Below are positions 27,199 through 42,195 of a stretch of 64,000 nt of DNA, one piece after another. Below the pieces are notes generated by a model. It was not told where the DNA came from. It saw only the letters and a program-made list of their open reading frames with translations, and searched no databases. The first letter of the stretch is position 1, and the number at the start of each line of letters is the position of its first letter. The stretch spans positions 62,001-126,000 of the forward strand of contig JABCZO010000001.1 in assembly GCA_013289615.1 (NCBI GenBank). Reading direction: 5' to 3'. Position numbers and translations under genes: made by a program. The stretch is from Gammaproteobacteria bacterium (GTDB lineage: Bacteria > Pseudomonadota > Gammaproteobacteria > Steroidobacterales > Steroidobacteraceae).

Positions 27199-27745
27199 CA
27201 CGTGCGCTCTTTTAAGGGGTCATCCGCTGCGAAGTACAACACCGAGCGAAGCGGCTCCCCACTCATCCAGGGGTCTTGCGCCAGGCGAGCCGGCTGGGCC
27301 GAGGGTAAATGGGGGCGAAAGCGGCTCGGCGCACCGTACTAGATACCGGATGTAAAGGAAAATGGTCGTGTCGGTAGCGGGCATCGGCGCGCGCGAGGCC
27401 GCCCGCGTGAGCAACAATCGCGCGTCTTAGCGGCACGCGAGCGATATCGCCCAGCTATGCACCCGGGCCGCGCACCGCCGAGCATCAACGCCAGCGCCCG
27501 GATTGTCACTAACGTGCAACTTTCGCCATTTAGCATCTGCTCCGGTACATGGTCTTGTTGTAAAAACATTAACGACGCGTGAGCACGTCGCAGCAACTGC
27601 GAGCGTGGTCGCGTTTGCTTTGTCTGACTCATCAGGGCGCAAACCTCAGCAAACCTGTGCCGACACGGGGCGCCCCGCCGGTGAATTTTTTGGCCTCCAA
27701 GACTGTTGGTTTTGCGCTTCACAAATCGATCTCAGGGAGAGCTTC
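27199..27745. other. Long intergenic region upstream of the TonB-dependent receptor gene
   Basis: 547 bases with no convincing gene. It must contain the promoters for the membrane protein (minus) and the receptor (plus). I looked for a cobalamin-type leader element before the receptor and saw none. An AT-rich patch around 27535-27570 is the likeliest promoter area. Confidence 0.4.
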
Positions 27746-30436
27746 TTGAAGACAAATCAAAAAGTGACCGCCGCAATCGTGGCAGCGCTGGGCATGCATG
27801 CCGGTGCATCCTACGCCGCTGGCGATACAGAAGTATCAGCGTCTACCAGCCTGGAAGAGGTCATCGTCACGGCGCAGCGGCGCAGCGAATCGATCCAGGA
27901 CGTGCCTATCACGATCCAGGCGATCACGGGCGACACACTGGATCAGCTGAGCGTGACAACCTTGGATGACGTCATCAAGTATCTGCCGAATGTGGCCTTC
28001 GGCACCAACGGCCCGGGTCAAGGCGATATCTTCATCCGCGGCTTGAGTCCCGGCACGGTGGGGGGCCAGTCAACCGCGACCTTTGCCCCGTTCCCGAATG
28101 TCGCGGTGTACCTGGATGACCAGTCGATGCAGTTCCCGTCGCGCAACCTCGATGTCTACATGGTCGACATGGAGCGCATCGAGGTGCTCGAGGGCCCCCA
28201 GGGCACGCTGTTCGGCGGCGGCGCCGAGGCGGGCGCGATCCGCTATATCACCAACAAGCCGAAACTCGACGTGACCGAGGGTAACCTCGAGGGCACCTAT
28301 GGCTGGACCGCCGGTGGCGACCCGAACCCGAGCGTCAACGGAACCCTCAATCTGCCGCTGCTGCAGGACACCCTGGCCCTGCGCGCAGTGATCTACGACG
28401 ACCGGCGCGGCGGCTACATCGACAACGTACCGAGCACCTTCACGCGCAGCAACAACGATGCCGGTAACTACTACGCCGGCATCAAGCCCGGCGCCAACGG
28501 TCTTTGTCCGAACGGCCTGGGAACGACTTCGGGCTTCTGCGTGCCGGCGAACAACACTGTCGGCAACAACTACATGATCGCGCACGACGCATCGAACCCC
28601 GTCACCTATGGCGGAGCGCGCGCGTCGCTGCTGTGGAAAATCAACGACGACTGGAATGCTCTAATCTCGCAGAGCTTCCAGAATATGGAAGCGGACGGCG
28701 AATTTACGCAGTACCCGGTCGGTTCCGACGGCCAGAAGCTCGGGCCCTGGCAGGTTACGGCGTTTGTCCCGGCGTACGACAAGGATCGGTACGAAAACAC
28801 CTCTTGGACGCTCAACGGCAAGCTCGGCGACCTGAAGGCCGTCTATACCGGCGGCTACCTCGATCGTCACATCGACCAGACCAACGACTATTCGAACTAC
28901 ACGCGCAGCGCAGAAGGCTTCTACTACAGCTGCAGCGGTGGTCCGGGCGGCGGCGGCTTTGGAGCGGGCGGCAGCCCCGGTGCACCAGCAGGTGGAACGC
29001 CTCCGATCTGCTACTCGCCGATCACTTCCTGGCGCGACCAGGTAACCACGACCCACCAGAGCCACGAACTGCGCGTCAGCACGCCGGATGAATGGCGTGC
29101 CCGGGGAATCCTCGGCGCCTTCTACGAGGATTTCGAAATCGCCGACAACATGAATTTCCTCTACAAGACCATTCCGTCGTGCACACCTGAGAACCTCGCC
29201 GCCGCGATTGCCGGCGGCTACCCCTGTGTCGCCAACGTCGGCCCGTTGCCTGGAACCACCGCCTCCGACCCCAGCGTGCGCAACGACAATACCGCCTACG
29301 GCGAGGACGTCCATCGCGGCTACAAGCAGACAGCGTTCTTCACCTCGATCGACTTTGACCTGATCCCTAAGGTGCTGACAATCACCGGCGGCACCCGCTT
29401 CTACCACTACACCGAATTCGAGGTGGGATCGAAGTACACGACGGGCACGGCTTGCACGGACGTGCCGAACGGCTGCTACGCCGGCGTGACCAGCATCGAT
29501 GGGGAGCATGAACACAAGGGCTACCACGGCTTCAGGAGCCGCGGCAACCTGACCTGGCACATCACACCCGACATCCTGGCGTACTACACCTTTTCGCAGG
29601 GCTTTCGTCCGGGCGGGTTCAACCGTACCATCGCCAACAAGGCGGACGACACCAACGGCGTGCCGCAGTACTCCTCACCGCTGGGCTATGCGCCGGACTC
29701 ACTCACCAACAATGAGATCGGCATTAAGAGCGAATGGCTCGATCGACGCCTGCAGGTGGACGTGTCGGCCTACCGCATGAACTGGAACAACGTGCAATTC
29801 ATCCTGTTCGACCCGACCATCCTCGGTAACACAACGTTCGTGGTTAACGGTCCGGACTATCGGATCGATGGCGTCGAGCTGCAGCTGGTGGCAAGAATTA
29901 CTGACGGACTGACAGTGCAAGGATCAAGCTCCTGGAACAGTCCTAGCCAGACCTCGGCTCCATGCCTGCTCGACAACTACCCGACCTCGCCGAATCTCGG
30001 CAACTGCATCACCGAGGTCAAGGGGGCCGCGTTCCCAAATCCGTTCGGTGCAGCAGGCGGTCGACCGGCCTTTTCGCCGGCGGTGGAGTTCAACCTGCGA
30101 GCGCGCTATGACTGGGCCATTGGCAGCTACAAGACATTCGTGATGGCCGGCGCCAGCCACATCGGCGACATGCAGAACCAGCCGGCCAGCTACCTGTTCG
30201 GCGACATTCCGTCGGAGGCGGTCCCGACCACCACGCACCTGCGCTACGATCAGCCCGGCTACACGGTGTACGATGCCTCGCTCGGCGTGGCCAAGGACAA
30301 CTGGACTGCGACGCTCTACGGCCAGAACCTCGGCAATAGCGACGCCAGTGTGTTCACGTCCTCGGCGCAGTTTATCAAGTCGGAAGTGCCGCTGCGGCCG
30401 CGGGTGGTGGCCATCAAGATCGGCTACAAATTCTAG
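27746..30436 (+). CDS. TonB-dependent outer-membrane receptor
   Basis: 896 residues from a TTG start with a good ribosome site (GGGAGA, spacing 7). It has a signal peptide (AAIVAALGMHAGASYAAG) and a TonB-box-like stretch (LEEVIVTAQRR). The plug domain (about 50-160; DVPITIQAITGDTL, ERIEVLEGPQGTLFGGGAEAGAIRYITNKP) leads into the 22-strand barrel, ending with an aromatic C-terminus (VAIKIGYKF). A Gly-rich insertion lies in an outer loop near residue 400. It belongs to the large group used for carbohydrates, peptides or other organics rather than classic siderophores, judged from similarity alone. A terminator hairpin follows the stop, then the sulfotransferase gene. Confidence 0.93.
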   Translation: MKTNQKVTAAIVAALGMHAGASYAAGDTEVSASTSLEEVIVTAQRRSESIQDVPITIQAITGDTLDQLSVTTLDDVIKYLPNVAFGTNGPGQGDIFIRGLSPGTVGGQSTATFAPFPNVAVYLDDQSMQFPSRNLDVYMVDMERIEVLEGPQGTLFGGGAEAGAIRYITNKPKLDVTEGNLEGTYGWTAGGDPNPSVNGTLNLPLLQDTLALRAVIYDDRRGGYIDNVPSTFTRSNNDAGNYYAGIKPGANGLCPNGLGTTSGFCVPANNTVGNNYMIAHDASNPVTYGGARASLLWKINDDWNALISQSFQNMEADGEFTQYPVGSDGQKLGPWQVTAFVPAYDKDRYENTSWTLNGKLGDLKAVYTGGYLDRHIDQTNDYSNYTRSAEGFYYSCSGGPGGGGFGAGGSPGAPAGGTPPICYSPITSWRDQVTTTHQSHELRVSTPDEWRARGILGAFYEDFEIADNMNFLYKTIPSCTPENLAAAIAGGYPCVANVGPLPGTTASDPSVRNDNTAYGEDVHRGYKQTAFFTSIDFDLIPKVLTITGGTRFYHYTEFEVGSKYTTGTACTDVPNGCYAGVTSIDGEHEHKGYHGFRSRGNLTWHITPDILAYYTFSQGFRPGGFNRTIANKADDTNGVPQYSSPLGYAPDSLTNNEIGIKSEWLDRRLQVDVSAYRMNWNNVQFILFDPTILGNTTFVVNGPDYRIDGVELQLVARITDGLTVQGSSSWNSPSQTSAPCLLDNYPTSPNLGNCITEVKGAAFPNPFGAAGGRPAFSPAVEFNLRARYDWAIGSYKTFVMAGASHIGDMQNQPASYLFGDIPSEAVPTTTHLRYDQPGYTVYDASLGVAKDNWTATLYGQNLGNSDASVFTSSAQFIKSEVPLRPRVVAIKIGYKF

Positions 30437-30503
30437 CTGCTGCCCAATCAGCGCGGCAGGCTCCGGCCAGTTGCGGCGGACTCAGCCGGTTGCCGTAGAA
30501 TCC

Positions 30504-30527
30504 AAGGCGGGCAGTGACGCCCGCCTT
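30504..30527 (+). terminator. Hairpin terminator after the TonB receptor gene
   Basis: A perfect 9-bp stem (AAGGCGGGC / GCCCGCCTT) with a 6-base loop, followed by only one further T. It sits between the receptor stop (30436) and the sulfotransferase start (30546). Confidence 0.6.
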
Positions 30528-30545
30528 TGCCATTCTTCGACGCGC

Positions 30546-32570
30546 ATGAACCTGACCGCTACCGATCCGCAGGCCTCGCCGCCGCAGCCATCGCCGATCG
30601 AGCTGCATGTACGGCGCATTCGCGAACTGGCAAAGGTTCGGCGGCACGCCGAGGCGCTTGCTGCGGCCGAGACCCTTGGCGCCGAGGTGCCCGAAAATCG
30701 CGATGTGCTCTATCTCATCGCACTGAATCAGCGCCACATGAATCGCATTCCCGAGGCGCTCACGACGCTCGAACGCCTGGAGCGGCTGCACCCGCGCTTC
30801 AGCCGTGTGCACCAGGAACGTGGTCATTGTTACGTCGCCATCCGGGACGCGTCGCGCGCGATCGACGCCTTTTTGCGCGGGGTGAACCTTAATCCGGCCC
30901 TGCCCGCGAGCTGGAGCATGCTCGAGAATCTGTATCGCATGACCGGAGATGCGGCCAATGAGGCCATGGCCGCGCAGCACGTGGCGACACTCAAGCGCCT
31001 GCCGCCTGAGGTGGTGACGGCCACGAGCTTGTTTTCGGACGGAGAACTGGCGCCCGCGGAGAACATCATCCGTGCCTATCTGCTGCAGCATGGCAACCAC
31101 ATCGAAGCCATGCGCCTGCTGGCAAAGATCGGCATCGCGCGCGACGTGCTGGACGACGCGGAGCTGCTGCTCGAGGCCGTGCTCACGCTGGCGCCCGACT
31201 ACCGCGCCGCGCGCCATGACTATGCGCTGGTGCTGGTCGAGCGTCACAAATACCAGCAGGCTCGCGAGCAGCTCGAGACGCTGCTGCAAATCGAGCCGGA
31301 CAATCGCCACTACCGCACCCTCTACGCAACCGCCTGCGTGGGCCTCGGCGAGCACGACAAGGCGATCCCGCTCTACCGCGAACTGCTGGTCGGCTCACCG
31401 GCAGCCCCGGAGCTGCACCTGTCGATCGCACACTCGCTCAAGACCATCGGGCGGCGCGAGCAGGCCATCGACGCGTACCGCGCTGCCGCCGCTGCCCGGC
31501 CGAACTACGGCGAAGCCTACTGGAGCCTGGCGAACCTCAAGACCTATCGTTTCCTGGACGAGGAAATCGCACGCATGCGCGCCGAGGAGGCGCGGCCGGA
31601 AACGCCGCTAGCCGATCGCTACCACCTGTGTTTTGCGCTCGGCAAGGCCTACGAGGATCGGGGCGAGTACGGGGTGTCGTGGGGTTACTACGAGCGCGGC
31701 AATGCGCTGAAGCGCTCGGAGAGCCGTTACCGACCGGAGATCATCGAGAACAACACACGGATGCAGATCGCCACGTGCACGCGCGAGTTATTCGCCGCGC
31801 GCGCGGGCTCGGGCGCGCAGGATCCGGATCCCATCTTCATTCTGGGGCTGCCCCGTTCCGGCTCTACGTTGCTCGAGCAGATCCTGGCCTCGCATTCGCA
31901 GGTCGCCGGCACGCAGGAACTGTCCGACATTCAGCGCTTCGTGCTCGAGCTGCAGGGCCGCGACCCAGACCTCGCCAATCCGCGCTACCCGGGCGCGCTG
32001 GCGGACCTGAAGGCCACCGATCTGCTGCGATTCGGCGAAAAATACCTGAACGACACGCGCGTCTACCGCACCGACAGGCCATATTTCGTCGATAAAATGC
32101 CGAACAACTTCCGCCACATCGGACTTATCCACCTCATATTGCCCAACGCCCGGATCATCGACGCGCGGCGCGAGCCGATGGCCTGCTGCTTCAGCAATCT
32201 CAAACAGCTGTTCGCCAATGGACAGGAATTCACCTACAGCATCGAGGACATCGCGCGCTATTACCGCACCTATCTCGAGCTGATGCAGCACTGGGATCAG
32301 GTGTTGCCGGGCAAGGTACTCAGGGTCTGGCACGAAGACGTGGTTGACGACCTGGAAGGTAACGTGCGGCGACTGCTCGATTTCTGCGGGCTGGAATTCG
32401 AACTGGCCTGCGTTGAGTTCTACAAGACCGAGCGGCGTGTACAGACAGCCAGCTCCGAGCAGGTGCGCCAACCGATCTTTCGCGACGGCCTGGAGCAGTG
32501 GAAGAACTACGAGCCCTGGCTCGGCCCGCTCAGGCAGGCGCTCGGCGACGCGCTGGTGCGTTATCGCTGA
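30546..32570 (+). CDS. TPR-repeat sulfotransferase family protein
   Basis: 674 residues. Tetratricopeptide repeats fill about residues 20-370 (for example LIALNQRHMNRIPEALTTLERL and YATACVGLGEHDKAIPLYREL). A C-terminal sulfotransferase domain (about 425-660) has the PAPS 5'-phosphosulfate loop FILGLPRSGSTLLEQIL. No signal peptide is seen. Proteins of this build are often encoded beside TonB-dependent receptors in Proteobacteria, as here. The acceptor is unknown. The last 10 bases overlap the convergent phnX gene. Confidence 0.9.
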   Translation: MNLTATDPQASPPQPSPIELHVRRIRELAKVRRHAEALAAAETLGAEVPENRDVLYLIALNQRHMNRIPEALTTLERLERLHPRFSRVHQERGHCYVAIRDASRAIDAFLRGVNLNPALPASWSMLENLYRMTGDAANEAMAAQHVATLKRLPPEVVTATSLFSDGELAPAENIIRAYLLQHGNHIEAMRLLAKIGIARDVLDDAELLLEAVLTLAPDYRAARHDYALVLVERHKYQQAREQLETLLQIEPDNRHYRTLYATACVGLGEHDKAIPLYRELLVGSPAAPELHLSIAHSLKTIGRREQAIDAYRAAAAARPNYGEAYWSLANLKTYRFLDEEIARMRAEEARPETPLADRYHLCFALGKAYEDRGEYGVSWGYYERGNALKRSESRYRPEIIENNTRMQIATCTRELFAARAGSGAQDPDPIFILGLPRSGSTLLEQILASHSQVAGTQELSDIQRFVLELQGRDPDLANPRYPGALADLKATDLLRFGEKYLNDTRVYRTDRPYFVDKMPNNFRHIGLIHLILPNARIIDARREPMACCFSNLKQLFANGQEFTYSIEDIARYYRTYLELMQHWDQVLPGKVLRVWHEDVVDDLEGNVRRLLDFCGLEFELACVEFYKTERRVQTASSEQVRQPIFRDGLEQWKNYEPWLGPLRQALGDALVRYR

Positions 32571-33355
32571 ACCAGACTGGCACGCTCGAGCGCAGGGACC
32601 AGGTCTGCGACCGACTCGATTGCCACATCGGCACCGGCGTCGAGCAGCAGCGCGCGGGTAGACTCAATGCGCCGGGCGCGCTCGGTCAATGGCAGCGCAT
32701 GCAGGGCTTCAAGTGATAGGCCGAGTTCATTGCCCGACGCCACCCCGACCGTGTAGGCGCCGGCGGCCCTGCCTTCGGCAATCCCTACTACCGCATCATC
32801 GACCTTGACCACCCGCGACAGCGGCCAGACGCCCAATTCCGCGCATGCCTTGTAGATCATCAGCGGCGACGGCCGGCCCGCCGGCGTCTCGCCGGAACAC
32901 ACCAGGTGCTCCGGTACGTAGCCCTGCTCGGCAGCGCGCGCCAGCAGGGATTGCATCATCTCGCGCGTGTAGCCGGTCGAGGACGCAACCCGCAGCCCCG
33001 CGGCCCTCAGCCGATCGAAGGTCTGCCGGGCCCCGGGGATCAGCGTTGATGCGCGCGCGGCGTGCTCGCGCATCAACGGCCCAAGCCGCGCAATCAACAC
33101 CTGCACGTCCTGTTCGTTCGATGCGCGACCGTGCCGGGCAAGCCAGGCCGCCGCAACCGCTGGTTCCGCCAGCAGGCTGCGAACGTGATCGATCTTGGCC
33201 TTGCCCATATCGCGGCGCGCGGTAGCCTCATCGATCACCACGTCGTCGGCGGCGAAGCCTTCGATCAGCGCCCTGACCGGCGCCTCGCAACCGAAATCGA
33301 CCATCGTGCCTGCCCAGTCGAAGATGACCAGGTCGAAGTGATCCTTGAGGCTCAC
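32561..33355 (-). CDS. phnX: Phosphonoacetaldehyde hydrolase (phosphonatase)
   Basis: 264 residues, HAD superfamily. The nucleophile motif is FDWAGTMVDFG, the phosphonatase form of DxDxT. The cap lysine that forms a Schiff base with the aldehyde is present in MGKAKIDHVRSL. Further PhnX signatures are SSTGYTREMM, GRPSPLMIYKA and VVKVDDAVVGIAEG. It hydrolyses the C-P bond of phosphonoacetaldehyde to acetaldehyde and phosphate in the cytoplasm. GTG start; the upstream FAD gene's stop overlaps it (GTGA). It is the last gene of the six-gene operon. No PhnW transaminase is visible nearby, so the aldehyde is probably supplied by the FAD oxidoreductase. Confidence 0.93.
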   Translation of the reverse strand: MSLKDHFDLVIFDWAGTMVDFGCEAPVRALIEGFAADDVVIDEATARRDMGKAKIDHVRSLLAEPAVAAAWLARHGRASNEQDVQVLIARLGPLMREHAARASTLIPGARQTFDRLRAAGLRVASSTGYTREMMQSLLARAAEQGYVPEHLVCSGETPAGRPSPLMIYKACAELGVWPLSRVVKVDDAVVGIAEGRAAGAYTVGVASGNELGLSLEALHALPLTERARRIESTRALLLDAGADVAIESVADLVPALERASLVQR

Positions 33356-34503
33356 GGGGCGGGTCCGGCACCAAATAGGCTGGTAATCACTTCCTCTCCA
33401 ATCGCAAAGCCGGTGGAGGCGCCGGCCCCGCAGGTAACGATAGCGACGCGAACCGATGGCTCTGGCGCATCGATCAATACCGGACGATCGGCAGCGAACG
33501 CATAGGTGCCGATCCAGCGCTCGATAGTCGGTGGCGGCTCGATCCCGAGCGCCGAGCGGAATTCATCGAGAATGAGCGCGTCGATGGCCTGATGGGAGAA
33601 CGGGTCAGGGGTGGTTGCATAGTGATGGCTATCCCCCACGATCAGGCTACCGTCGGCGCATTGTACGACGATCAGATGGACGCCATGTTCCAGATGCTGC
33701 GCCTGTTCGAGCGCCAGCCGCGCCTTGAGCGGCGCGGCAGCCTCAAGGTCGGCGTAGCCGCGGTGGCGGCCGAGTCCCAGGTCCGACATCAGCGCAGCAG
33801 GCAACTTGAAGCCGGGATCGGCCAACCGCAGCATCTGCAGCTTGCAACGCGTGAGCCCATAGCCCTCGAGTCGCAGCGCATACAGGGCGTTGAAGTCATC
33901 CCCGGGGCATACCGCTACCCGACCTGCCTGCACGATACCGCTCGACGTCTGCAGATTCGGGGTATCTATCGACTGCACCGTGGTATTGCGCAGGAAGCTG
34001 ACGCCGTGCGCGCCGGCAAGCCAGCTCGCAAGACGTGGAATCGCCTGTCGCGACTCGACGCGAAGCTCGATCGTGCTTTCCAGCACCGCCGCCAGTTTCG
34101 GCGCCAACAGTTGCGGGCACCGGCGGCGCGCTTCGGCAGGCGTCAGCAGGCGACAGCCTGCCGCCATCTTGGTCAGCATGAATGCCTCGAGTAAAGCGGC
34201 AGACTCCGGATGTCTGGCGGTCATCCACAGGCCGGTATGGACGATGGGAATGCCGGCGGCATCGGCCAATTCGCGCCATACCTCGCGACTGCGCCGTGCG
34301 CGCTCCCACATCGATCCGCGTTGCTGGCCGGTCACCGTCACGAAACCGAAGTTGCGTACCGAGGCACCATTCGCCTGGGCATCGCGATCGATCACGACGA
34401 CCCGCAACCCGCGGCGTGCGGCGGCCAGGGCGGTGGCGAGTCCGACGATCCCGGCGCCTACGACCGCCAGATCGAATCGCCCCGACAATTGGCTTGGAGA
34501 CAT
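33352..34503 (-). CDS. FAD-dependent oxidoreductase of the phosphonate-associated (TIGR03364) type
   Basis: 383 residues. The FAD-binding dinucleotide fold is at the N-terminus (DLAVVGAGIVGLATALAAARRG) with the acidic end of strand 2 in VVVIDRD. NGASVRNFGFVTVTGQ is the characteristic second motif of this branch, and a C-terminal GAGASTGFAIGEEV contacts FAD. The DAO-type family includes glycine and sarcosine oxidases. TIGR03364 members are linked by gene context to aminophosphonates. The probable role is oxidation of aminoethylphosphonate or its N-methyl form to phosphonoacetaldehyde, which PhnX would use. It starts at ATG 34503, 14 bases after the enolase-like gene, and overlaps phnX. Confidence 0.88.
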   Translation of the reverse strand: MSPSQLSGRFDLAVVGAGIVGLATALAAARRGLRVVVIDRDAQANGASVRNFGFVTVTGQQRGSMWERARRSREVWRELADAAGIPIVHTGLWMTARHPESAALLEAFMLTKMAAGCRLLTPAEARRRCPQLLAPKLAAVLESTIELRVESRQAIPRLASWLAGAHGVSFLRNTTVQSIDTPNLQTSSGIVQAGRVAVCPGDDFNALYALRLEGYGLTRCKLQMLRLADPGFKLPAALMSDLGLGRHRGYADLEAAAPLKARLALEQAQHLEHGVHLIVVQCADGSLIVGDSHHYATTPDPFSHQAIDALILDEFRSALGIEPPPTIERWIGTYAFAADRPVLIDAPEPSVRVAIVTCGAGASTGFAIGEEVITSLFGAGPAP

Positions 34504-34517
34504 AGCTGTTGAGCCCG

Positions 34518-35627
34518 TCAGGGGTCGACCCACGCGCTCGCCTGGTGCCTCGCACCGGCCAGCCATTCGGGATTGATCTCCACACCCCAGCCCGGTAAGC
34601 ACGGAATGCTCGCGCAACCGTCGCGAATCGCGAACGGATCGCCCAGGAACAGGCCCTCCTGCCAGGGATAGTAATCGGGACCCTCGATTGAGAACTCGAG
34701 ATATTTTCCCGCATTCGGTATCGCACCCAGCAGGTGCATCGTGCAGATGGTAACCAACGACAGGTTGGCGCAGTGTGGCGTGCAGGGCAGTCCGGCGCCG
34801 GCCGCCATCGCAGCCACCCTGAGCGTGCGGCTCAGGCCTCCCATGTACATGATGTCGGGCTGCACGACGTCCACCGTGCGGGTGTCGATCATGCGGCGCC
34901 AGGTCGCGAGGTCCCAGTCCTGCTCGCCGCCGGTCACGTCGAGCTGTAGCGCATCGGTGACCAGCTTTGTCTGCTCCAGTTCCCAATAGGGACACGGTTC
35001 CTCGAAGTGACTCACGCCTTCGGACTCGAGCAGCCGGCCGACCTCGATCGCGCGCGCCGGCGAGAAGCCGCTGTTCGCATCGACCAGCTTCGCGACACCT
35101 TCTCCCAGTGCGCGAGCTACCGTCGGCACGATCGCCTCGGTGCGACCCGGCCACTCATCCACGTCCCGACCGCATTCGGCAGCGACACGCCACTTGAACG
35201 CGTCGAAGCCCTTGGTGTCGCGCAGCCGCAGCAGACGCTGCGCCTCGGCCAGGGGCGTAATATCGCGCCTCATCGATGAGGCGTAGGCACGCAACGACCT
35301 GGCCCGGCCGCCGAGCAGCTCGACTACCGGCCTGCCCTGCACGCGCCCGCGCAGATCCCACAGCGCCGTATCCAGCCCGGCCAGGGCCCGGCAGCGGTAG
35401 CTGCCCGGGAACTTGTGCTCGCGCTCCTCGATCCGGCGCACCAGCCCGTCGATGTCGGCCGCATCCGCGCCCAGCGCCCACGGCGCGACCTGACGGTGGA
35501 AGATCGTGGCCGTGATGTCGGCGTTGTAAGTGGAGGTCTGTCCCCAGCCTACGTCACCGGTGTCGGTCGTGAGGCGCACGAAGCAGACGAACTGGCTGGC
35601 AAAGGTCTCCAGCTTGTGGATCTTCAT
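34518..35627 (-). CDS. Enolase-superfamily (mandelate racemase/muconate lactonizing type) protein
   Basis: About 369 residues from ATG 35627 (MKIHKLETF); a TTG at 35651 is the alternative. The capping domain is about 1-110. The barrel carries three acidic metal ligands, in VDANSGF, HFEEP and GGEQDW. The catalytic strand-2 region reads FKWRV (Lys kept, second Lys replaced by Arg), and a possible general base His is in CTPHCANLS. Members take a proton alpha to a carboxylate and catalyse dehydration, racemisation or cycloisomerisation. The place inside a phosphonate operon is the puzzle: it may act on a hydroxyphosphonate or a carboxylate product. I know of no established role for this superfamily in phosphonate breakdown. 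Confidence 0.88.
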   Translation of the reverse strand: MKIHKLETFASQFVCFVRLTTDTGDVGWGQTSTYNADITATIFHRQVAPWALGADAADIDGLVRRIEEREHKFPGSYRCRALAGLDTALWDLRGRVQGRPVVELLGGRARSLRAYASSMRRDITPLAEAQRLLRLRDTKGFDAFKWRVAAECGRDVDEWPGRTEAIVPTVARALGEGVAKLVDANSGFSPARAIEVGRLLESEGVSHFEEPCPYWELEQTKLVTDALQLDVTGGEQDWDLATWRRMIDTRTVDVVQPDIMYMGGLSRTLRVAAMAAGAGLPCTPHCANLSLVTICTMHLLGAIPNAGKYLEFSIEGPDYYPWQEGLFLGDPFAIRDGCASIPCLPGWGVEINPEWLAGARHQASAWVDP

Positions 35628-35651
35628 CCCTGCATCCGTTGCGATGGCCAA

Positions 35652-36197
35652 CTACGCTACAGCCAGTCGGTCGATGAGCGCGCGGTAACTGGAAAAATCG
35701 GCCGTCGCCAGACCCGCAATCTTGCCCCGGTCGTCCCATTGCCGGACCAGGATTGCTTCCCGATGATAGGGTTCGGCCTCGAAGGCGTCCGCCTCGGCAC
35801 TCGACATCGGACCGCCCTGCAGCTTCAGGGTCAGAACCGATGCCGCACTGAGCTTGCCGAAATAGTCCGGGTCTGTGGCACACAGGTAGCGTTTCGCCGG
35901 CACGTGCAGGCGCACCGGTTCGCACACCCCGGGTCCGAAGTGCGCCGCCAGCCATCGGCTGCCGGTCCATTCGTGACCCGCATCGATTTTCCAGTCGGCG
36001 ATATCGTCCGGCACCGACTCGATCAGGTGGCCGATGTCGTGCAGCAATGCCGCGATTACCAACGCATCCGGAGCCTTGGCGGCTTGCGCGAAATGCGCAG
36101 CCTGCAGGCTGTGTTCGGTAATGGTGACCGCCTCGCCGAAGTAGTGCGCCGCCCCGCCTGGCTGGTAGATCGACAACAGTACATCGGACATCCTCAT
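35652..36197 (-). CDS. HD-domain oxygenase of the PhnZ/TmpB type
   Basis: 181 residues. The metal-binding histidines and aspartate of the HD fold are visible: ITEHSLQAAHFA, ALLHDIGH, AGHEWTG, then VRLHVPAKRYLCA. The last block, together with LSAASVLTLKLQGGPMS, is the signature of phosphonate-associated HD proteins. A Tyr-x-x-Glu pair (YFGE, residues 19-22) matches the spacing of the substrate-gating Tyr/Glu pair known in PhnZ. PhnZ and TmpB are mixed-valent di-iron oxygenases that split 1-hydroxy-phosphonates to a carboxylate and phosphate. The start overlaps the stop of the dioxygenase gene (ATGA). It could act on hydroxy-aminoethylphosphonate or its trimethyl form. Confidence 0.9.
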   Translation of the reverse strand: MRMSDVLLSIYQPGGAAHYFGEAVTITEHSLQAAHFAQAAKAPDALVIAALLHDIGHLIESVPDDIADWKIDAGHEWTGSRWLAAHFGPGVCEPVRLHVPAKRYLCATDPDYFGKLSAASVLTLKLQGGPMSSAEADAFEAEPYHREAILVRQWDDRGKIAGLATADFSSYRALIDRLAVA

Positions 36198-37339
36198 CGC
36201 TGCATTCCGCTAACGACTCGGCGCCGCAACAGTGCCGTTTCGCTATAGACGCTGTCGCGCGTCAGGTAACAGCCGCGCAGGTGCCGCGGATGGCGCGCCG
36301 ATGCGAATCCGGTACGGCCATGCAGGATCCGCTGGTTGTCAAACACTACCAGCTCACCGTTACCGAGCAAGGTGCGCAACTGGAAGCGCGGCTCGCGCAG
36401 CAGTTCGCCAAACTGCCGATAGGCGGCGTAGAACGGCTGGCATTGGCCGGCCGCGAGGCGCAGCGGCCCGATCGAGCGACTGTTGTAATGCACAGCGATG
36501 ACGACACCGGTGCAGGACAGTTCGATCAGCGGGCGTTCTGCATACAGATCCGCATCGTTCGACCGATACCGGAATGGTACCGCCGTGCGCGTGAGAATCG
36601 CGAACACCTGCGGCCAGCTCTCGCGCAGGTGCTCGGCCAGAGCAAATCCGTCGGCGAACAGGCTGTCGCCTCCATCGGGCGCGGCAACCAGCGTGTGCAG
36701 CGCCTGATAGCCAGGTACCGGATTGCGGTACGGATTATCGGTATGCAAGCCAAGACCAAGATCTGAATAGGCTAGATTCTCCGGCTGCGCAACCGCACGC
36801 ACATCGAACACCAGGCCGTAATTGGTCTCGGCGATGCGGCCGATCAGGCTCATCGCCTGCAGGATGCCGCTGTCGACTGCAGGCACCTCACTCAGGAACG
36901 CCATGCCCTGGCGCAAAAGCCGTGTCAGCCATGCGAGCCGAGCCTGTGGATCAGCCTGCAACACTCCCATTGGCCGACAGGCGAAGTCTCGACCGGGCTC
37001 GAGCTGGCCGCCGTCCAGCCAGCGCAGCGGCTCCGGCACGGGGCTGTCATGACCGTGGATCGCCTGCTCATACAGCCAGTCAAGTGCAAACGTGGAAACG
37101 CGCGATTCATCGCGCCAGGCGATGCGCACGGTCGCATCGGCCAGTGTCGCGGTGCGGATTCGCGGCTGCACTGGAAGTTCGGTCACGTCGATCAGGCGTT
37201 GGCCGCTGTAGCCGTCCCGATCCTCCGGCAGGTTGTCGCGCAACCAGATACTGGCGAATTCGGCGCTGGTACCGTCGTTCCACTCGACGGTGAGCAGAGC
37301 GTCACGGGCGTTCACGCCCGTACACGGGATCGACGGCAT
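36194..37339 (-). CDS. 2-oxoglutarate/Fe(II) dioxygenase, TmpA-like (gamma-butyrobetaine hydroxylase family)
   Basis: About 381 residues. A short N-terminal domain (about 5-95) of the GBBH-like type is followed by a TauD-type double-stranded beta-helix. The iron triad is HTD (LGLHTD) and the distal His in RILHGRTG, with the co-substrate Arg in RHLRGCY. The N-terminal domain lacks the zinc-binding cysteines seen in gamma-butyrobetaine hydroxylase (WLRDNLPEDRD here). Alone it would be called carnitine biosynthesis. Next to an HD oxygenase it fits TmpA, which hydroxylates 2-(trimethylamino)ethylphosphonate at C1. Start: GTG 37342 or ATG 37339, both overlapping the permease stop. Confidence 0.85.
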   Translation of the reverse strand: MPSIPCTGVNARDALLTVEWNDGTSAEFASIWLRDNLPEDRDGYSGQRLIDVTELPVQPRIRTATLADATVRIAWRDESRVSTFALDWLYEQAIHGHDSPVPEPLRWLDGGQLEPGRDFACRPMGVLQADPQARLAWLTRLLRQGMAFLSEVPAVDSGILQAMSLIGRIAETNYGLVFDVRAVAQPENLAYSDLGLGLHTDNPYRNPVPGYQALHTLVAAPDGGDSLFADGFALAEHLRESWPQVFAILTRTAVPFRYRSNDADLYAERPLIELSCTGVVIAVHYNSRSIGPLRLAAGQCQPFYAAYRQFGELLREPRFQLRTLLGNGELVVFDNQRILHGRTGFASARHPRHLRGCYLTRDSVYSETALLRRRVVSGMQR

Positions 37340-38700
37340 CACGGCATTCTACTCGCCTTCGCAGCGGCTCTGCGCTCCAGACCATACAGGCGGCCGGCAC
37401 CGATCGCAGCGCAGAGACTGATCACGGCCAGGGACAGAAAAACGCCCTTCCAGCCGAAGGCGATCGACACGCGTGCCACGGTGACACCCCCGAGGACTGA
37501 ACCGAGATAGCCGACGCCATCGATGATGCCGGAGGACAATGCAGCGCCCTGTTTGCCGCCGAAGTCGATCGCCAGGGCGCCCCCGAGGTACGAGTAGGGA
37601 CCGATCAGGCATAACGCGGTGATACCGATTGCGAGCAGCGGCAGCATCGGGCCCACCGTGCTCGAGCGCAGCAGTGCCAGCGTCAACAGTGCGGCGGCAG
37701 TGGCCAGAAGGCCTATGCACATGACCCCCGGCCGGCTGTTGGCACCGAGTCGATCGCTCAACCAGCCAGCGGCGAGCACCGACACTGCGCCAACGGCGGG
37801 AAACACCGCACTGGCGCTGGCCGCAGCGCTCATGCTGTAGCCGAAGAAATCCCGCAGGTAGACCGGTGTCCAATAGTTGAAGGTCTCGCGCACGATCGTA
37901 CAGCCGAGCGACAGCAGGCACACGAGCAGGAAGGCACGGCTCTTGAATAGCGGCAGGACCAGCGCCGCCACGCTGGCCGGTCTTGCGGCGGAATCGCCGT
38001 ACACGTTTTGCGGGTTCGGCGTCGCCTCGGCGTAACCCGCATCGGTGCGCGATTCGCGCAACAGCAGCGCATTGGCGATGAGAAAAAAACCTGCGACCGC
38101 GGCGGCCAGGTAGAACAGCGCCCTCCAGCCATACCCGTGCTGGATCAACAGGCCCATCCACTGGCGGGCCGCGGCATCCCCGACCAGATAGCTGACGCTC
38201 AGAATCCCCACGATCGTCCCGTGCGAGGTGAAGTCGAACCACCGGGACGACACCTTGATCAGTCCCGCCCATCCGATCGACTGGGTCAGGCGGTTGCCCA
38301 GCCAGGCCATCGTGAACACCGGCAGTGTCCCGCCCAACGCGAATAGCACGGTGAAGAGCGTGGCGCCGCCAAGGCAAATCAGGAAATTCGGCCGGCCGCC
38401 CCAGAAATCTCCGAGGCCCGTCAGAAACAGCTTGCCGATGGCATAGGCGAATACTCCAATCGATGCGATCTGGCCAATATGCACCAGCGCATCGGCATGG
38501 CTGACGCCGCGGTTCCCCAGCTCCTCGATCAGCAGTGGTGCCGCCACAGACAGATCGGCCCGGCAGAAATAGCACGAGGCATACCCGCCAAACAGCAGCA
38601 CGAGCGTCAGGAACTGACGCAATCGCAACCCTGAGCCTTGGTCGCCGACGACGCGGCCGGCGCACGACGCTGCCCCGCTGCTGTACTCGCCATCGTTCAT
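37339..38700 (-). CDS. MFS permease of the organophosphate:phosphate antiporter (GlpT/UhpT) type
   Basis: 453 residues, about 12 membrane helices. The first helix region GGYASCYFCRADLSVAAPLL resembles the GYAxxYxxRxxFSxAxP signature of the OPA family (GlpT, UhpT, PgtP), whose conserved Arg binds the phosphate group. Later features are GLGDFWGGRP and GWLSDRLGAN loops and ETFNYWTPVYL. As first gene of the phosphonate operon it is the likely uptake system for the aminophosphonate substrate. Its promoter should lie in 38701-38830. Confidence 0.88.
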   Translation of the reverse strand: MNDGEYSSGAASCAGRVVGDQGSGLRLRQFLTLVLLFGGYASCYFCRADLSVAAPLLIEELGNRGVSHADALVHIGQIASIGVFAYAIGKLFLTGLGDFWGGRPNFLICLGGATLFTVLFALGGTLPVFTMAWLGNRLTQSIGWAGLIKVSSRWFDFTSHGTIVGILSVSYLVGDAAARQWMGLLIQHGYGWRALFYLAAAVAGFFLIANALLLRESRTDAGYAEATPNPQNVYGDSAARPASVAALVLPLFKSRAFLLVCLLSLGCTIVRETFNYWTPVYLRDFFGYSMSAAASASAVFPAVGAVSVLAAGWLSDRLGANSRPGVMCIGLLATAAALLTLALLRSSTVGPMLPLLAIGITALCLIGPYSYLGGALAIDFGGKQGAALSSGIIDGVGYLGSVLGGVTVARVSIAFGWKGVFLSLAVISLCAAIGAGRLYGLERRAAAKASRMP

Positions 38701-38830
38701 ATAGCCCCTGCTCTCTGGACGAGTTTAGGTCGCTAAGATGTGGCAACGGTTACAGGGTCCCCGGATCGACTCTAGGGCAGTGGCACCTTGGCCTGCAACC
38801 GGCGCCATCGGCTGCGTGCCGGCGGCAGCA

Positions 38831-39667
38831 CTATTTTCTCTTGACGGTCGGCTTCGGAGCCGTCGGTTTCGAGGTCGACGTGCCGGTACGCCGCGCCAGC
38901 TGCAATTGCACCCACACGGGAGCGTGATCGCTCGCATGCGGTTGGCCGCGCATGTCGCGATCGACGTCTGCTGCTACCAGTCGTGGCTGCAGTTGCCCGC
39001 TCAAGAGCAGGTGATCGATTCGCAAACCCGCGTTACGTAGCCAATGGTTGCGAAAGTAGTCCCAGAAAGTATAGATGCGCTCATCCGGATGCTTGCTGCG
39101 CAGCGCATCGATCCACCCCTGTGCAAGCAGACGCTCGAATGCTGCGCGAGTCTGGGGCTGCAGCAGCGCGTCCTTTTTCCAGGATCTGGTGTCATAGATA
39201 TCGAGATCCGTAGGTACCACGTTGTAGTCGCCGGCCAGCACCACCGGCAGCGCCGATTCAAGCAGCTTGCCGGCGTAGCCGATGAGCCGCTCGAACCATG
39301 CAAGCTTGTAGTCGAATTTGGGACCTGGCTGGGGATTGCCGTTCGGCAGATAAAGACATCCGACCACCACGCCCTGCACCTGCGCTTCGATGTATCGACT
39401 CTGGGAGTCGTCAGGATCGCCAGGCAGGCCGCGCCGGGTTTCGATCGGGTCCGCCCCTCTGGCGAGAATCGCAACGCCATTCCAGGAGCGCTGTCCGTGC
39501 CAGATCGCGCCGTATCCGGCTTCGCGGATGGCAGCGATCGGGAAAGCGCTGTCGATCGCCTTGAGTTCCTGCAGACAGACGACGTCGGGTGAAGTTCGCG
39601 ACAGCCAGTCAATCAACGCGGGCAGGCGACTGGCAATGCCATTGACATTGAAGGTGGCTATTCTCAT
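38831..39667 (-). CDS. xth: Exodeoxyribonuclease III
   Basis: 278 residues, full family length. The metal and catalytic residues are in FNVNGI (Asn), CLQELK (Glu), LYLPNG, GDYNVVPTDLDI (Asp/Asn), RIDHLLLS (Asp) and SDHAPVW (Asp-His). It acts in base-excision repair as an AP endonuclease and 3' exonuclease. A Thr/Pro/Lys-rich tail of about 15 residues is appended. It is a stand-alone gene between the phosphonate operon and a small Cys-containing protein gene, on the same strand as both. Confidence 0.95.
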   Translation of the reverse strand: MRIATFNVNGIASRLPALIDWLSRTSPDVVCLQELKAIDSAFPIAAIREAGYGAIWHGQRSWNGVAILARGADPIETRRGLPGDPDDSQSRYIEAQVQGVVVGCLYLPNGNPQPGPKFDYKLAWFERLIGYAGKLLESALPVVLAGDYNVVPTDLDIYDTRSWKKDALLQPQTRAAFERLLAQGWIDALRSKHPDERIYTFWDYFRNHWLRNAGLRIDHLLLSGQLQPRLVAADVDRDMRGQPHASDHAPVWVQLQLARRTGTSTSKPTAPKPTVKRK

Positions 39668-40050: not shown

Positions 40051-40440
40051 CGTTTGCTCCGTATGACCGTGCGATCGGCCGAAACATTCACCGGCGGTCG
40101 CCCATGACATTCACCTTATGTGCCGCTCCACCGGGTGCTTGATTCAGACTATCCGAGTTCTCAGATCCGATCATGATGTTTCGAGCGCGCCGGCAGTCAG
40201 GCGCCGATATTTTGAAATCAAGACTTCTATCCTTGACTGCGCACACGGCTATGTGGCTGCAAAATTCGTTGTCATAATGGCGCACTACCGCCGCGTCGCC
40301 CTCAGGCCGGTCGCGCCGGGATATCTCGCCTATTGCATCGCGTCCATCCGCGCATCGCTTCCATCCGGCATCGGACGGTACAATGTAACTATTATGCATC
40401 CCCTTCACCACGCGCGACATTGTTCCGCTTCGGCTGCAGC
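40051..40440. other. Intergenic region before the Rieske oxygenase gene
   Basis: 390 bases, somewhat less GC-rich than the genes around it. It separates divergent genes. A -10-like TACAAT at 40379-40384 could serve the Rieske gene, but no good -35 box sits at the right distance. I see no RNA gene. Confidence 0.35.
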
Positions 40441-41619
40441 ATGACCAATGATGCGAAGGCGGCTCCGGCCACGCGCGAGTATTCCGGGCTCCGGCGGCTC
40501 GAGTATTCGCTGCCGAGCAGCTGGTATTTCGATCCCTGCCAGTATGCTCTAGAGCTCGAGCGCGTCTGGTACCGCAACTGGATCTATCTGTGCCGTGCCG
40601 ACACGATCGCCGCGCCCTCCTCTTTTCGCACCTTTCGCATCGGCACCCAGCCGATCCTCGTCCTGCGCGACGAGGCCGATACCTTGCGGGCGTTCTACAA
40701 TACCTGCCGGCACCGCGGGTCGATGCTTTGCAACGAACCCGCAGGCCGGCTTGCGGGCAACCGCATCACCTGCCCGTATCATGCGTGGACCTATCGGTTA
40801 AGCGGCGAGCTGGCAGCCATTCCAACGGGCGGCCGACCACACCACATTCCGATCGGAGAGACAGCCCTGTACCCAATAGCGCTCAGTGAGTGGCATGGCT
40901 TCGTCTACATCAATCTCAGCCAATCGAGCTGCCGGTTCGGCGACAACTTCAATGCCAATCTACAGACCCTGGCCAATTGGCCGCTTTCGGAACTCAGGGG
41001 CGGCCATCGGCAGACCATGCGTTTGCATTGCAACTGGAAGATATTCTGGGAAAACTATAACGAGTGCCTGCACTGCCCGACAGTACATCCCGGCCTCAGC
41101 AACCTGGTGCCGATCTACCGCCGCGGCATTATGGAGCCGCATGACGATCCGAACTGGCGCGCACACGCGGCAGCTACCACCCCCGCCTACCAAGGTGGCC
41201 TGCGCGCCGGGGCGGCGACCTGGTCGGTCGATGGTCGCTCTCTCGGGCACGAGTTCCCCGCATTGACGGACGAGGAGCGTCGCATCGGTTATCACTACGT
41301 TACCAACCTGCCGTCGCATTACCTCGTGGCGCACGTAGACCATGTCCGCTCCTCGCGCCTGCTGCCGCTAGGGCCGGACGAGACCGAGCTTGAAATCGAG
41401 TGGCTATTCCCGACCGCGAGCCTGCAGGATCCAGCGGTTGATATCAGAAAAGCCTGCGACTTCTCGGCGCAGGTGATGGCCGAAGACGCAGCCGCATGCG
41501 AGAACAATCAGCGTGGTTTGCGATCCGCACCACACGCCCACGGCATGCTGATGCCCGAAGAGTATGACGTATTCCACCTGCACGAGTGGCTGCGCGCTCA
41601 GCTCGCCGCTGCGGGATAG
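40441..41619 (+). CDS. Rieske non-haem iron oxygenase alpha subunit, choline/betaine-monooxygenase type
   Basis: 392 residues. The Rieske 2Fe-2S ligands are in CRHRG (about 85) and CPYHAW (about 105). The mononuclear iron ligands are in ENYNECLHCPTVHP (about 205-218), with a late acidic ligand expected near the ENNQRGL block (about 355). NYxECxHCPxxHP and ENxQRG are typical of choline monooxygenase, GbcA (glycine betaine demethylase) and stachydrine demethylase. No reductase gene is adjacent. If the substrate is glycine betaine, it would pair with the phosphonate operon 1.7 kb away. The ATG lacks a clear ribosome site; a longer start at 40333 is possible. Confidence 0.87.
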   Translation: MTNDAKAAPATREYSGLRRLEYSLPSSWYFDPCQYALELERVWYRNWIYLCRADTIAAPSSFRTFRIGTQPILVLRDEADTLRAFYNTCRHRGSMLCNEPAGRLAGNRITCPYHAWTYRLSGELAAIPTGGRPHHIPIGETALYPIALSEWHGFVYINLSQSSCRFGDNFNANLQTLANWPLSELRGGHRQTMRLHCNWKIFWENYNECLHCPTVHPGLSNLVPIYRRGIMEPHDDPNWRAHAAATTPAYQGGLRAGAATWSVDGRSLGHEFPALTDEERRIGYHYVTNLPSHYLVAHVDHVRSSRLLPLGPDETELEIEWLFPTASLQDPAVDIRKACDFSAQVMAEDAAACENNQRGLRSAPHAHGMLMPEEYDVFHLHEWLRAQLAAAG

Positions 41620-41727
41620 CCTGACGGCGCCGGTAACACGCTCAAAGCGAATTCAACCGCAACAATCGGGGTGGATCGGCAACTGTGTCGGGATACCGTG
41701 CCGCTCTACTGATTGCGCGAGCCCGTC

Positions 41728-42195
41728 ATGCACTTCCGAATTTCCGGCCTGTCGCCAGTGCCCTTCCGCCATCTCTACGGACTTAGCGACGATGAGTTGG
41801 TGCGCGAAGGCGTGATTCGTTACATCGCCGATAAAGCACCAGGCTTTCCGGATCGGATCGAGATGCGCGATGCCGACATCGGCCAGCGGCTTCTACTTCT
41901 CAATCATGTCTGTCAGCCGGCGGATACTCCGTATCGCGCCACACACGCCATTTTCGTCCGCGAAGGTGCTGAAGAAACCTACGATCGCATCGACGAAGTC
42001 CCGCAGGTAATGCGTACCCGATTGCTATCCCTGCGCGCATATGACTCGTCAGGCATGATGCTGGATGCCGACGTCGTTGATGGCCGCGAAATCGAGCCGA
42101 TCATCGGGCGCCTATTTGGAAACGACCGGATTGCGTACATTCATGCCCACAACGCCAAGCGCGGTTGCTACTCGGGGCGCATCGACCGCGCGTGA
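41728..42195 (+). CDS. DUF1203 domain-containing protein
   Basis: 155 residues, start MHFRISGLSP. Family marks are PFRHLYGLSDDEL, KAPGFPDRIEMRDADIGQRLLLLNHVCQPADTPYRATHAIFVREGA, TRLLSLRAYD and IHAHNAKRGCYSGRIDRA. Function unknown. It is downstream of the Rieske gene by about 110 bases on the same strand. Confidence 0.9.
   Translation: MHFRISGLSPVPFRHLYGLSDDELVREGVIRYIADKAPGFPDRIEMRDADIGQRLLLLNHVCQPADTPYRATHAIFVREGAEETYDRIDEVPQVMRTRLLSLRAYDSSGMMLDADVVDGREIEPIIGRLFGNDRIAYIHAHNAKRGCYSGRIDRA

What the first reader, a model, noticed from the sequence alone, without database searches (positions are those of the whole stretch)
32561..38700. Six-gene operon combining oxygenative and hydrolytic phosphonate breakdown
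Seen: six minus-strand genes with ATGA/GTGA-type overlaps encode an OPA-type permease, a TmpA-like dioxygenase, a PhnZ/TmpB-like HD oxygenase, an enolase-superfamily protein, a TIGR03364-type FAD oxidoreductase and PhnX. Known: PhnY/PhnZ and TmpA/TmpB release phosphate by hydroxylation and oxidative C-P cleavage; PhnX hydrolyses phosphonoacetaldehyde. Inference: the operon takes up N-methylated aminoethylphosphonates and runs both routes in parallel, the trimethyl form going to glycine betaine and the mono- or unmethylated form through the FAD enzyme to phosphonoacetaldehyde. I do not know of a described operon with exactly this set.
Basis: partly seen in the sequence, partly recalled or inferred. 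Interest (0 to 1): 0.88.

Follow-up and report, generated by a model that had tools for sequence, protein, structure and literature searches.

The report
Merged aminophosphonate-scavenging operon with orphan enolase
A bacterium carries one operon that seems to join two known ways of freeing phosphate from aminoethylphosphonates, plus an enolase-family enzyme of unknown job; each half is known, the join is unusual, and the enolase is the open question.

Summary
The six-gene minus-strand operon (32561-38700) is real. The FAD oxidoreductase (TIGR03364) and PhnX pass their curated cut-offs; the permease is GlpT/SLC37A4-like MFS; the HD protein keeps PhnZ/TmpB sequence features; the dioxygenase scores best as TmpA but misses the cut-off and sits in a sister clade, outside both TmpA and GBBH-like references. 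The operon looks like a merger of modules that relatives carry singly: dioxygenase-HD with permease (24 of 37 HD loci), FAD-PhnX (adjacent in 11 of 24 FAD genomes), and an enolase. A congener (G125) has the other five genes in the same order without the dioxygenase, so the join is unlikely to be an assembly accident. Most likely: import of aminoethylphosphonate and its N-methyl forms, trimethyl form oxidatively cleaved, mono-/unmethylated form oxidised to phosphonoacetaldehyde and hydrolysed. HD + TIGR03364 + PhnX in one cluster is in print (Achromobacter) and recurs in Pseudomonadota, so "oxygenative plus hydrolytic" is not itself new; dioxygenase and enolase are the additions. The enolase family is mostly not phosphonate-linked (8 of 51 family genomes); in six of those eight, all one genus, it stays by AEP genes while PhnX and PhnA-PhnY swap. 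Its reaction is unknown.

The parts
37339..38700 (-). MFS permease of organophosphate:phosphate antiporter type (GlpT/SLC37A4-like; AepP-like role inferred)
   Evidence: Pfam MFS_1; best NCBIfam PgtP 137 bits, below its cut-off 407.75; SLC37A4 and GlpT among the 8 PDB sequences hit
36194..37342 (-). TmpA-like Fe(II)/2-oxoglutarate dioxygenase (GTG 37342 or ATG 37339 start)
   Evidence: NF049936 346.4 bits (cut-off 400), TIGR02409 284.1 (cut-off 414.75); PDB best 6npb TmpA; tree; residues
35652..36197 (-). HD-domain mixed-valent di-iron C-P oxygenase candidate (TmpB/PhnZ-like)
   Evidence: TIGR03276 200.4 bits (cut-off 214.6), NF049941 188.7 (cut-off 300); PDB 6npa TmpB, 4mlm PhnZ; tree
34518..35627 (-). 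Enolase-superfamily protein, mandelate-racemase-like, function unknown (ATG start; TTG at 35651 possible)
   Evidence: Pfam MR_MLE; closest PDB 3t8q/3t9p/3u4f/3tcs, named only mandelate racemase/MLE family protein or putative racemase; candidate catalytic residues kept in 107-108 of 108 rows, window included
33352..34503 (-). TIGR03364 FAD-dependent oxidoreductase (PbfD/HpnW type)
   Evidence: 413.6 bits against cut-off 285.1
32561..33355 (-). PhnX phosphonoacetaldehyde hydrolase
   Evidence: TIGR01422 304.4 bits against cut-off 220; D13, K54, D187 align with D12, K53, D186 of the solved enzyme (roles recalled)
40333..41619 (+). Neighbour, not in the operon: Rieske oxygenase related to betaine/carnitine monooxygenases; possible later step on glycine betaine
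   Evidence: best NCBIfam GbcA 169.4 bits, far below its cut-off 670; PDB best 4qup/3vca, also 6y8j carnitine monooxygenase; a relative over 100 bits in only 3 of 106 other loci

Best explanation
A merged aminophosphonate-scavenging operon. The OPA-type permease imports aminoethylphosphonate (AEP) and its N-methyl forms. The dioxygenase hydroxylates the quaternary (trimethyl) form at the carbon bearing phosphorus, and the HD di-iron oxygenase splits the C-P bond to glycine betaine and phosphate. In parallel the TIGR03364 oxidase converts N-methyl-AEP or AEP to phosphonoacetaldehyde (PAA), which PhnX hydrolyses to acetaldehyde and phosphate. It arose by joining a dioxygenase-HD cassette with permease, an FAD-PhnX pair and an enolase gene that relatives carry apart. 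Shown here: gene content, order, family placement, key residues, modular distribution. Inferred: every substrate and reaction, and the history. The enolase is left without an assigned reaction; my guess is a carboxylate epimerase or dehydratase for a co-degraded compound.
For: FAD and PhnX over cut-offs; PbfD enzymes turn M1AEP, and some AEP, into PAA; pbfD genes outside the PbfD1 subgroup are most commonly with phnX alone (PMC10590968, passages). No PhnW match in G000 or G125 and no PhnJ in 15 of 15 genus genomes, so the FAD enzyme would be the source of PAA. Dioxygenase keeps H200/D202/H341 and shares N203, Y205, N287, R289, S290 with 7 of 7 TmpA references and 30 of 30 family sequences (window included), absent in 4 of 4 bacterial GBBH-like sequences. 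HD carries the TmpB/PhnZ signatures. 30 of 37 family HD loci have a TmpA-like gene, 24 of these also a permease (22 of the 24 with the permease first). In congener G063 the modules lie on three contigs. AepP, a GlpT-related MFS permease, imports AEP (PMC8316502, passages).
Against: Dioxygenase and HD both miss curated cut-offs; the dioxygenase shares only 38.5% identity with TmpA and lies in another clade, so another substrate is possible. N203, Y205 and R289 also occur in 2 of 2 SPRL-type dioxygenases of unknown substrate, and the cage positions are filled by aromatic residues in bacterial GBBH-like proteins too, so these marks do not prove a phosphonate substrate. G125 keeps the operon without the dioxygenase. 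I had no PbfD sequence to place the FAD enzyme. No Pho-box excess: 4 matches in the window, 3.8 expected, one of them (3 mismatches) inside the dioxygenase gene. No sigma-70-like promoter found; 6 terminator-like sites against 3.1 expected, four of them on the operon strand inside the permease gene. The genome is 83% complete, so absences are soft.
Confidence: 0.68

Rival explanations
1. The dioxygenase-HD pair serves another substrate than trimethyl-AEP, for example mono- or dimethyl-AEP or plain AEP, so both routes compete for, or split, a lower-methylated pool.
For: Own 30-row clade, support 100, outside the TmpA clade; 13 positions fixed differently from TmpA; HD genes also sit with PhnX/TIGR03364 or PhnW-PhnA-PhnY without a TmpA gene.
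Against: Positions Y175, F179, Y192, Y359 match the trimethylammonium cage recalled for human GBBH, and the TmpA-shared Asn/Arg positions are kept.
Confidence: 0.22
2. The HD protein mainly works with the hydrolytic module on imported (R)-1-hydroxy-AEP, as suggested for Achromobacter PhnHD, and the dioxygenase is an optional remnant of the ancestral cassette.
For: G125 (97% complete) has permease-HD-enolase-FAD-PhnX with best dioxygenase homologues at only 41% and 29% identity; HD and TIGR03364 lie within 10 kb in 10 of 398 Pseudomonadota genomes, own included; Achromobacter and Comamonas clusters.
Against: The window's dioxygenase frame is intact and groups with the congeners' dioxygenases (5 rows, 98), in line with the HD tree (6 rows, 99).
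Confidence: 0.2
3. The dioxygenase is a gamma-butyrobetaine hydroxylase and the enolase dehydrates the carnitine formed; the phosphonate genes are neighbours only.
For: GBBH model gives 284 bits; some enolase relatives lie by MTTB, BHMT-like and dimethylglycine-dehydrogenase-like genes (the last in 16 of 49 loci).
Against: 4 of 4 bacterial GBBH-like sequences lack N203, Y205 and R289; separate clade; close coupling to an HD oxygenase gene.
Confidence: 0.05
4. The enolase is a passenger with a general sugar-acid or amino-acid role unrelated to phosphonates.
For: In 43 of 51 family genomes with the gene, none of 12 phosphonate genes sought lies in the stretch read (15 of these 43 were read for less than 3 kb on one side); the gene is 75-88% identical to the window's across the family, whatever the context.
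Against: It sits inside phosphonate operons in two lineages; in six genomes of genus g18 it stays by AEP genes while PhnX and PhnA-PhnY swap.
Confidence: 0.5

Closest known systems
TmpA/TmpB pathway (Leisingera caerulea; review PMC10574752, passages; source paper not held)
   Same: Dioxygenase plus HD oxygenase gene pair; shared catalytic motifs
   Different: Separate dioxygenase clade below the TmpA cut-off; embedded with PhnX, FAD oxidase, enolase and permease
PbfD-PhnX hydrolytic route (PMC10590968, abstract and passages)
   Same: TIGR03364 oxidase overlapping PhnX, no PhnW found in the genome
   Different: Joined to a dioxygenase-HD cassette and an enolase
Achromobacter phosphonatase cluster (PMC11203657, passages and section 2.5)
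   Same: PhnX + TIGR03364-type flavin oxidoreductase (HpnW) + HD oxygenase (PhnHD)
   Different: There: ABC transporter phnSTU and LysR; the cluster is called eight-cistron and I saw seven genes named, no TmpA-like gene or enolase among them. Here: MFS permease, dioxygenase, enolase, all on one strand
AepP permease (PMC8316502, passages)
   Same: GlpT-related MFS permease beside AEP catabolic genes
   Different: Orthology to AepP not tested; no AepP sequence was at hand
G235 locus L350 (PhnW-PhnA-PhnY, LysR, TmpA, HD)
   Same: TmpA-type oxidative pair beside a hydrolytic AEP module
   Different: PhnWAY set, a TmpA over the cut-off (469.4 bits), no PhnX, FAD oxidase or enolase found in the 17 kb read

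Membership tests
TmpA (NF049936) | Curated score of at least 400 bits | tested here: not met
   346.4 bits
TmpA (NF049936) | Groups with characterised TmpA 6npb | tested here: not met
   7 TmpA references form their own clade (100), the window lies in a 30-row family clade (100) (quick tree)
TmpA (NF049936) | HxD...H triad and residues shared by TmpA, absent in bacterial GBBH-like sequences | tested here: met
   some of these residues also occur in 2 of 2 SPRL-type dioxygenases
Gamma-butyrobetaine dioxygenase (TIGR02409) | Curated score of at least 414.75 bits; groups with GBBH-like proteins | tested here: not met
   284.1 bits; outside the 9-row GBBH-like group (98), which holds long branches
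Phn-HD oxygenase (TIGR03276) | Curated score of at least 214.6 bits | tested here: not met
   200.4 bits; only 3 of 150 genomes of its own family pass
Phn-HD oxygenase (TIGR03276) | H...HD...H...H...D metal motif and Y-x-x-E of PhnZ/TmpB | tested here: met
   alignments; motif as given in PMC11203657 passage, Y-x-x-E recalled
TmpB (NF049941) | Curated score of at least 300 bits | tested here: not met
   188.7 bits; TmpB references form a separate clade (97)
TIGR03364 FAD oxidoreductase | Curated score of at least 285.1 bits | tested here: met
   413.6 bits
PbfD functional group | Oxidises M1AEP/AEP to PAA | not testable with these tools
   no PbfD reference sequence at hand, no assay
PhnX (TIGR01422) | Curated score of at least 220 bits; nucleophile Asp and Schiff-base Lys | tested here: met
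   304.4 bits; D13 and K54; the place of D190 is G191 here, and G also in 3iru
Enolase superfamily, mandelate racemase type | MR_MLE domains with acidic metal ligands and His-Asp dyad | tested here: met
   K145, D183, E209, E210, E235, D258, H285 in 108 of 108 rows and R147 in 107 of 108; roles assigned from memory
AepP permease | Transports AEP | not testable with these tools
   only family-level likeness

The most novel reading that the evidence does not exclude
The enolase is a new ancillary enzyme of aminophosphonate (or betaine) catabolism: probably recruited twice into AEP clusters, kept in one of them while the C-P-cleaving module is exchanged, and acting on a carboxylated or epimeric relative of the AEP series that none of the known Pbf enzymes handles; with it the operon would cover more forms of the AEP family than any described one.
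Probability: 0.2. Interest if true: 0.68.

Novelty: new variant of a known kind. Interest (0 to 1): 0.5.

Why it matters
It would be a compact phosphorus-scavenging unit covering plain to fully methylated aminoethylphosphonate in a bacterium with no detected PhnW or PhnJ, and it shows how such units are assembled from modules. It names two testable unknowns: the substrate of a TmpA-sister clade and the role of an enolase family whose solved structures (3t8q and kin) carry only generic names in the PDB table.

Tried and rejected
Assembly chimera: unlikely, five of six genes recur in order in G125. The dioxygenase's place in the operon is seen in the window alone, but it groups with its congeners' dioxygenases.

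Enolase as a phosphonate-specific family: rejected. In these 80 loci, some of them short contigs, the six window proteins found the permease beside 1 and a PhnX beside 1; with PhnW, PhnA, PhnY and a second PhnX added, the same two loci (L040, L084) were the only ones with the phosphonate genes sought.

Enolase acting directly as a racemase of hydroxy-aminophosphonates: disfavoured on general chemistry (this superfamily abstracts a proton next to a carboxylate; recalled), not tested. The published racemase for this step, PbfF, is NAD-dependent (PMC12366243, abstract and passages; the words 'enolase' and 'mandelate' do not occur in its main text).

Pho regulation: 4 matches in the window against 3.8 expected; none upstream of the operon, one weak one inside the dioxygenase gene.

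Glycine betaine use by the nearby Rieske gene: suggestive only; relatives of it lie in 3 of 106 loci.

Literature: searches (PMC open-licence library only; I saw the 8 to 20 papers listed per search, not all that matched) showed no paper with this six-gene set or with an enolase in a phosphonate cluster.

Trees: all quick trees. The careful enolase search did not finish. One enolase row (L283) was cut to 38 residues by my script's choice of range, not by the gene; I dropped it before the residue count (108 rows), and it distorts only the root of the tree drawn. L284 (176 residues, contig end) was not in the tree. My crude gene caller missed or mislabelled some genes, so the counts rest.
Full report
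Observation. The six genes are present on the minus strand at 38700-32561. Three of five junctions overlap by 1-4 nt; the enolase is preceded by 24 nt and followed by 14 nt. Pfam and NCBIfam give: MFS permease; TauD-family dioxygenase with GBBH-like N-terminus; HD protein; mandelate-racemase-type enolase; TIGR03364 oxidoreductase (413.6 bits, cut-off 285.1); PhnX (304.4, cut-off 220). The dioxygenase (346.4 to TmpA, cut-off 400; 284.1 to GBBH, cut-off 414.75) and the HD protein (200.4 to TIGR03276, cut-off 214.6; 188.7 to TmpB, cut-off 300) fall short of their curated cut-offs. The window's family is taken to be Steroidobacteraceae because two records titled so (L011, L040) match family contigs in length (L239, L274); this is inference.

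Dioxygenase. Closest solved structure is TmpA 6npb (38.5% identity over 356 positions). In a quick 50-row tree it lies in a 30-row clade of this bacterial family (support 100), apart from seven TmpA references (100) and nine GBBH-like proteins (98); long branches make the GBBH side unsure. The Fe triad H200/D202/H341 is intact. N203, Y205, N287, R289 and S290 are shared with TmpA (7 of 7) and the family clade (30 of 30, window included) and absent in four of four bacterial GBBH-like sequences. Against over-reading: N203, Y205 and R289 also occur in two of two SPRL-type dioxygenases of unknown substrate, and human GBBH has Asn at the place of N287. Positions matching the trimethylammonium cage recalled for human GBBH are Y175, F179, Y192, Y359, but bacterial GBBH-like proteins also have aromatics there. 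Thirteen positions are fixed differently from TmpA (all). I therefore call it TmpA-like, not TmpA.

HD protein. It aligns with TmpB (6npa) and PhnZ (4mlm) through Y-x-x-E, EH, HD, the later histidines and the distal Asp. In a quick 52-row tree it falls in a six-row group (support 99) with G125's HD protein (nearest, 76-77% identity) and four congeneric HD genes that sit by dioxygenases; the order inside is not resolved.

Modularity. TIGR03276 was sought in 150 genomes of the family; 38 full-length places in 37 genomes scored 194 bits or more. I read all 37 places other than the window, some cut by contig ends: 24 had permease + TmpA-like + HD (permease first in 22), 6 TmpA-like + HD, 4 HD alone, 1 FAD + HD + PhnX, 1 HD + PhnX, and 1 (L126, G125, same genus) permease-HD-enolase-FAD-PhnX with no dioxygenase. 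G125's best dioxygenase homologues are 41% and 29% identical to the window's. Among 217 family genomes TIGR03364 occurs in 24, PhnX in 25 (23 over the cut-off), the enolase in 51, PhnW in 68 at E of 1e-60 or better (53 over the cut-off); there is no PhnW match in G000 or G125. From the listed positions, TIGR03364 and PhnX are directly adjacent in 11 of the 24. In congener G063 the dioxygenase-HD pair, the FAD-PhnX pair and the enolase lie on three different contigs. The simplest history is that an old dioxygenase-HD cassette with permease, a FAD-PhnX pair and an enolase were joined in the ancestor of G000 and G125, and G125 then lost the dioxygenase; the order of events is inference.

Wider occurrence. 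In 398 Pseudomonadota genomes, HD occurs in 37 and TIGR03364 in 27; both within 10 kb in 10, own included. I read 20 of the 37 other HD places, nine chosen because they had both genes and eleven picked by hand, so the shares are not a survey: FAD alone 4, FAD + PhnX 4, FAD + PhnW/PhnA/PhnY 1, PhnW/PhnA/PhnY 4, PhnW + PhnX 1, PhnW/PhnA/PhnY + TmpA 1 (L350), TmpA alone 2, C-P lyase genes 1, none of these 2. The enolase was in none of the 20. Achromobacter (PMC11203657, section 2.5 and passages) and Comamonas endophytica carry PhnX + TIGR03364 + HD. So an HD oxygenase beside the hydrolytic route recurs and is published; a TmpA-type dioxygenase with it was met twice in what I read (window, and L350 with a different hydrolytic set), and the enolase inside such a cluster only in G000 and G125.

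Enolase. Closest solved relatives 3t8q, 3t9p, 3u4f, 3tcs carry only generic names. The candidate metal ligands, Lys-x-Arg and His-Asp dyad are kept in 107-108 of 108 rows (roles recalled), so it is probably an active enzyme. Of 51 family genomes with it (neighbourhoods read for all: window, L126, L237-L285), 8 have it near the phosphonate genes sought: the window, G125, three with PhnX-PhnW (L266, L272, L285) and three with PhnW-PhnA-PhnY (L263, L274, L282). Of the 43 negatives, 15 were read for less than 3 kb on one side because of contig ends. The six L2xx loci all come from genus g18, so they may be one recruitment. Xsc and an APC permease are seen on one side in L263, L266, L272 and L285; L274 is cut there by the contig, and L282 shows a second PhnA-PhnY pair instead in the 3 kb read. 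A glutamine-synthetase-like gene and aldehyde dehydrogenase follow the enolase in five (L285 is cut). Between these flanks PhnX and PhnA-PhnY are exchanged. A permease related to the window's lies directly before the enolase in L266, L272, L274 and L282, not in L263 or L285 (families). Other contexts include an SDR/Zn-ADH/MFS/FAD group and an MTTB + BHMT-like + dimethylglycine-dehydrogenase-like group; the last dehydrogenase type lies in 16 of 49 enolase loci and 0 of 37 HD loci. In the quick enolase tree the window and L126 pair up (98); five of the six g18 loci fall together with one non-phosphonate locus (90) and L285 apart, so two recruitments are likely but one is not excluded. Since most relatives lie elsewhere and are much alike (75-88% to the window in the family), one shared reaction useful in amine/betaine catabolism is as likely as a phosphonate-specific one; I leave it open.

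Mechanism. Published facts used: TmpA/TmpB convert trimethyl-AEP to glycine betaine and phosphate (PMC10574752, passages); PbfD oxidases turn M1AEP, and in some cases AEP, into PAA, and none of the oxidoreductases of that study took trimethyl-AEP (PMC10590968, abstract and passages); AepP is a GlpT-related AEP permease (PMC8316502, passages). From these the operon would cover both ends of the methylation series. With no PhnW found in the genome and no PhnJ in 15 of 15 genus genomes (the genome is 83% complete), the FAD enzyme is the only candidate found for making PAA. All substrate statements for this organism are inference.

Regulation. No sigma-70-like promoter was found in 32300-39000; six terminator-like sites (3.1 expected) include one just after PhnX (32523-32510) and four on the operon strand inside the permease gene. 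Pho-box-like matches are at the chance level.

Verdict. A real, somewhat divergent merger of two known aminophosphonate routes with a recurrent enolase of unknown reaction: a new variant of a known kind.

Noticed in passing
window 40333-41619 (+): Rieske oxygenase nearest to betaine/carnitine monooxygenases (GbcA best NCBIfam model, well below cut-off), 1.6 kb from the operon start on the other strand, followed by a DUF1203 gene (41713-42195).
   Followed up: partly
L130 6070-7122 and L301 (SPRL motif); own genome G000:C24:59420-60873 (outside the window): A further dioxygenase type (NPYR but SPRL motif) occurs in two loci. In G000:C24 a dioxygenase 42% identical to the window's lies next to a weak HD-like match; whether it is of the SPRL type was not checked. 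Possibly another oxygenase pair of unknown substrate.
   Followed up: no
L263, L266, L272, L285 (Xsc, APC); L263, L266, L272, L274, L282 (glutamine-synthetase-like and ALDH): AEP clusters that also hold a sulfoacetaldehyde acetyltransferase (Xsc) and GABA-permease-like APC, and a glutamine-synthetase-like/ALDH/Fe-ADH set (amidotransferase too in L272, L274, L282), as if one locus handled taurine, AEP and a gamma-glutamylated amine.
   Followed up: partly
L262, L267, L269, L270, L271, L273, L276, L279, L280, L281 (genus g12): Enolase beside a dimethylglycine-dehydrogenase-like gene, in most of these also MTTB methyltransferase, BHMT-like and CobT genes.
   Followed up: no
window 43640-45526 (-): Caspase domain joined to seven Sel1 repeats.
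   Followed up: no
window 27503-32570 (+): TonB-dependent receptor followed by a TPR-sulfotransferase gene; the mechanical ORFs overlap, a later start for the second is likely.
   Followed up: no
L315 5980-6540 and L314 5986-6534: HD oxygenase genes inside or next to C-P lyase operons (Nostoc, Variovorax).
   Followed up: no
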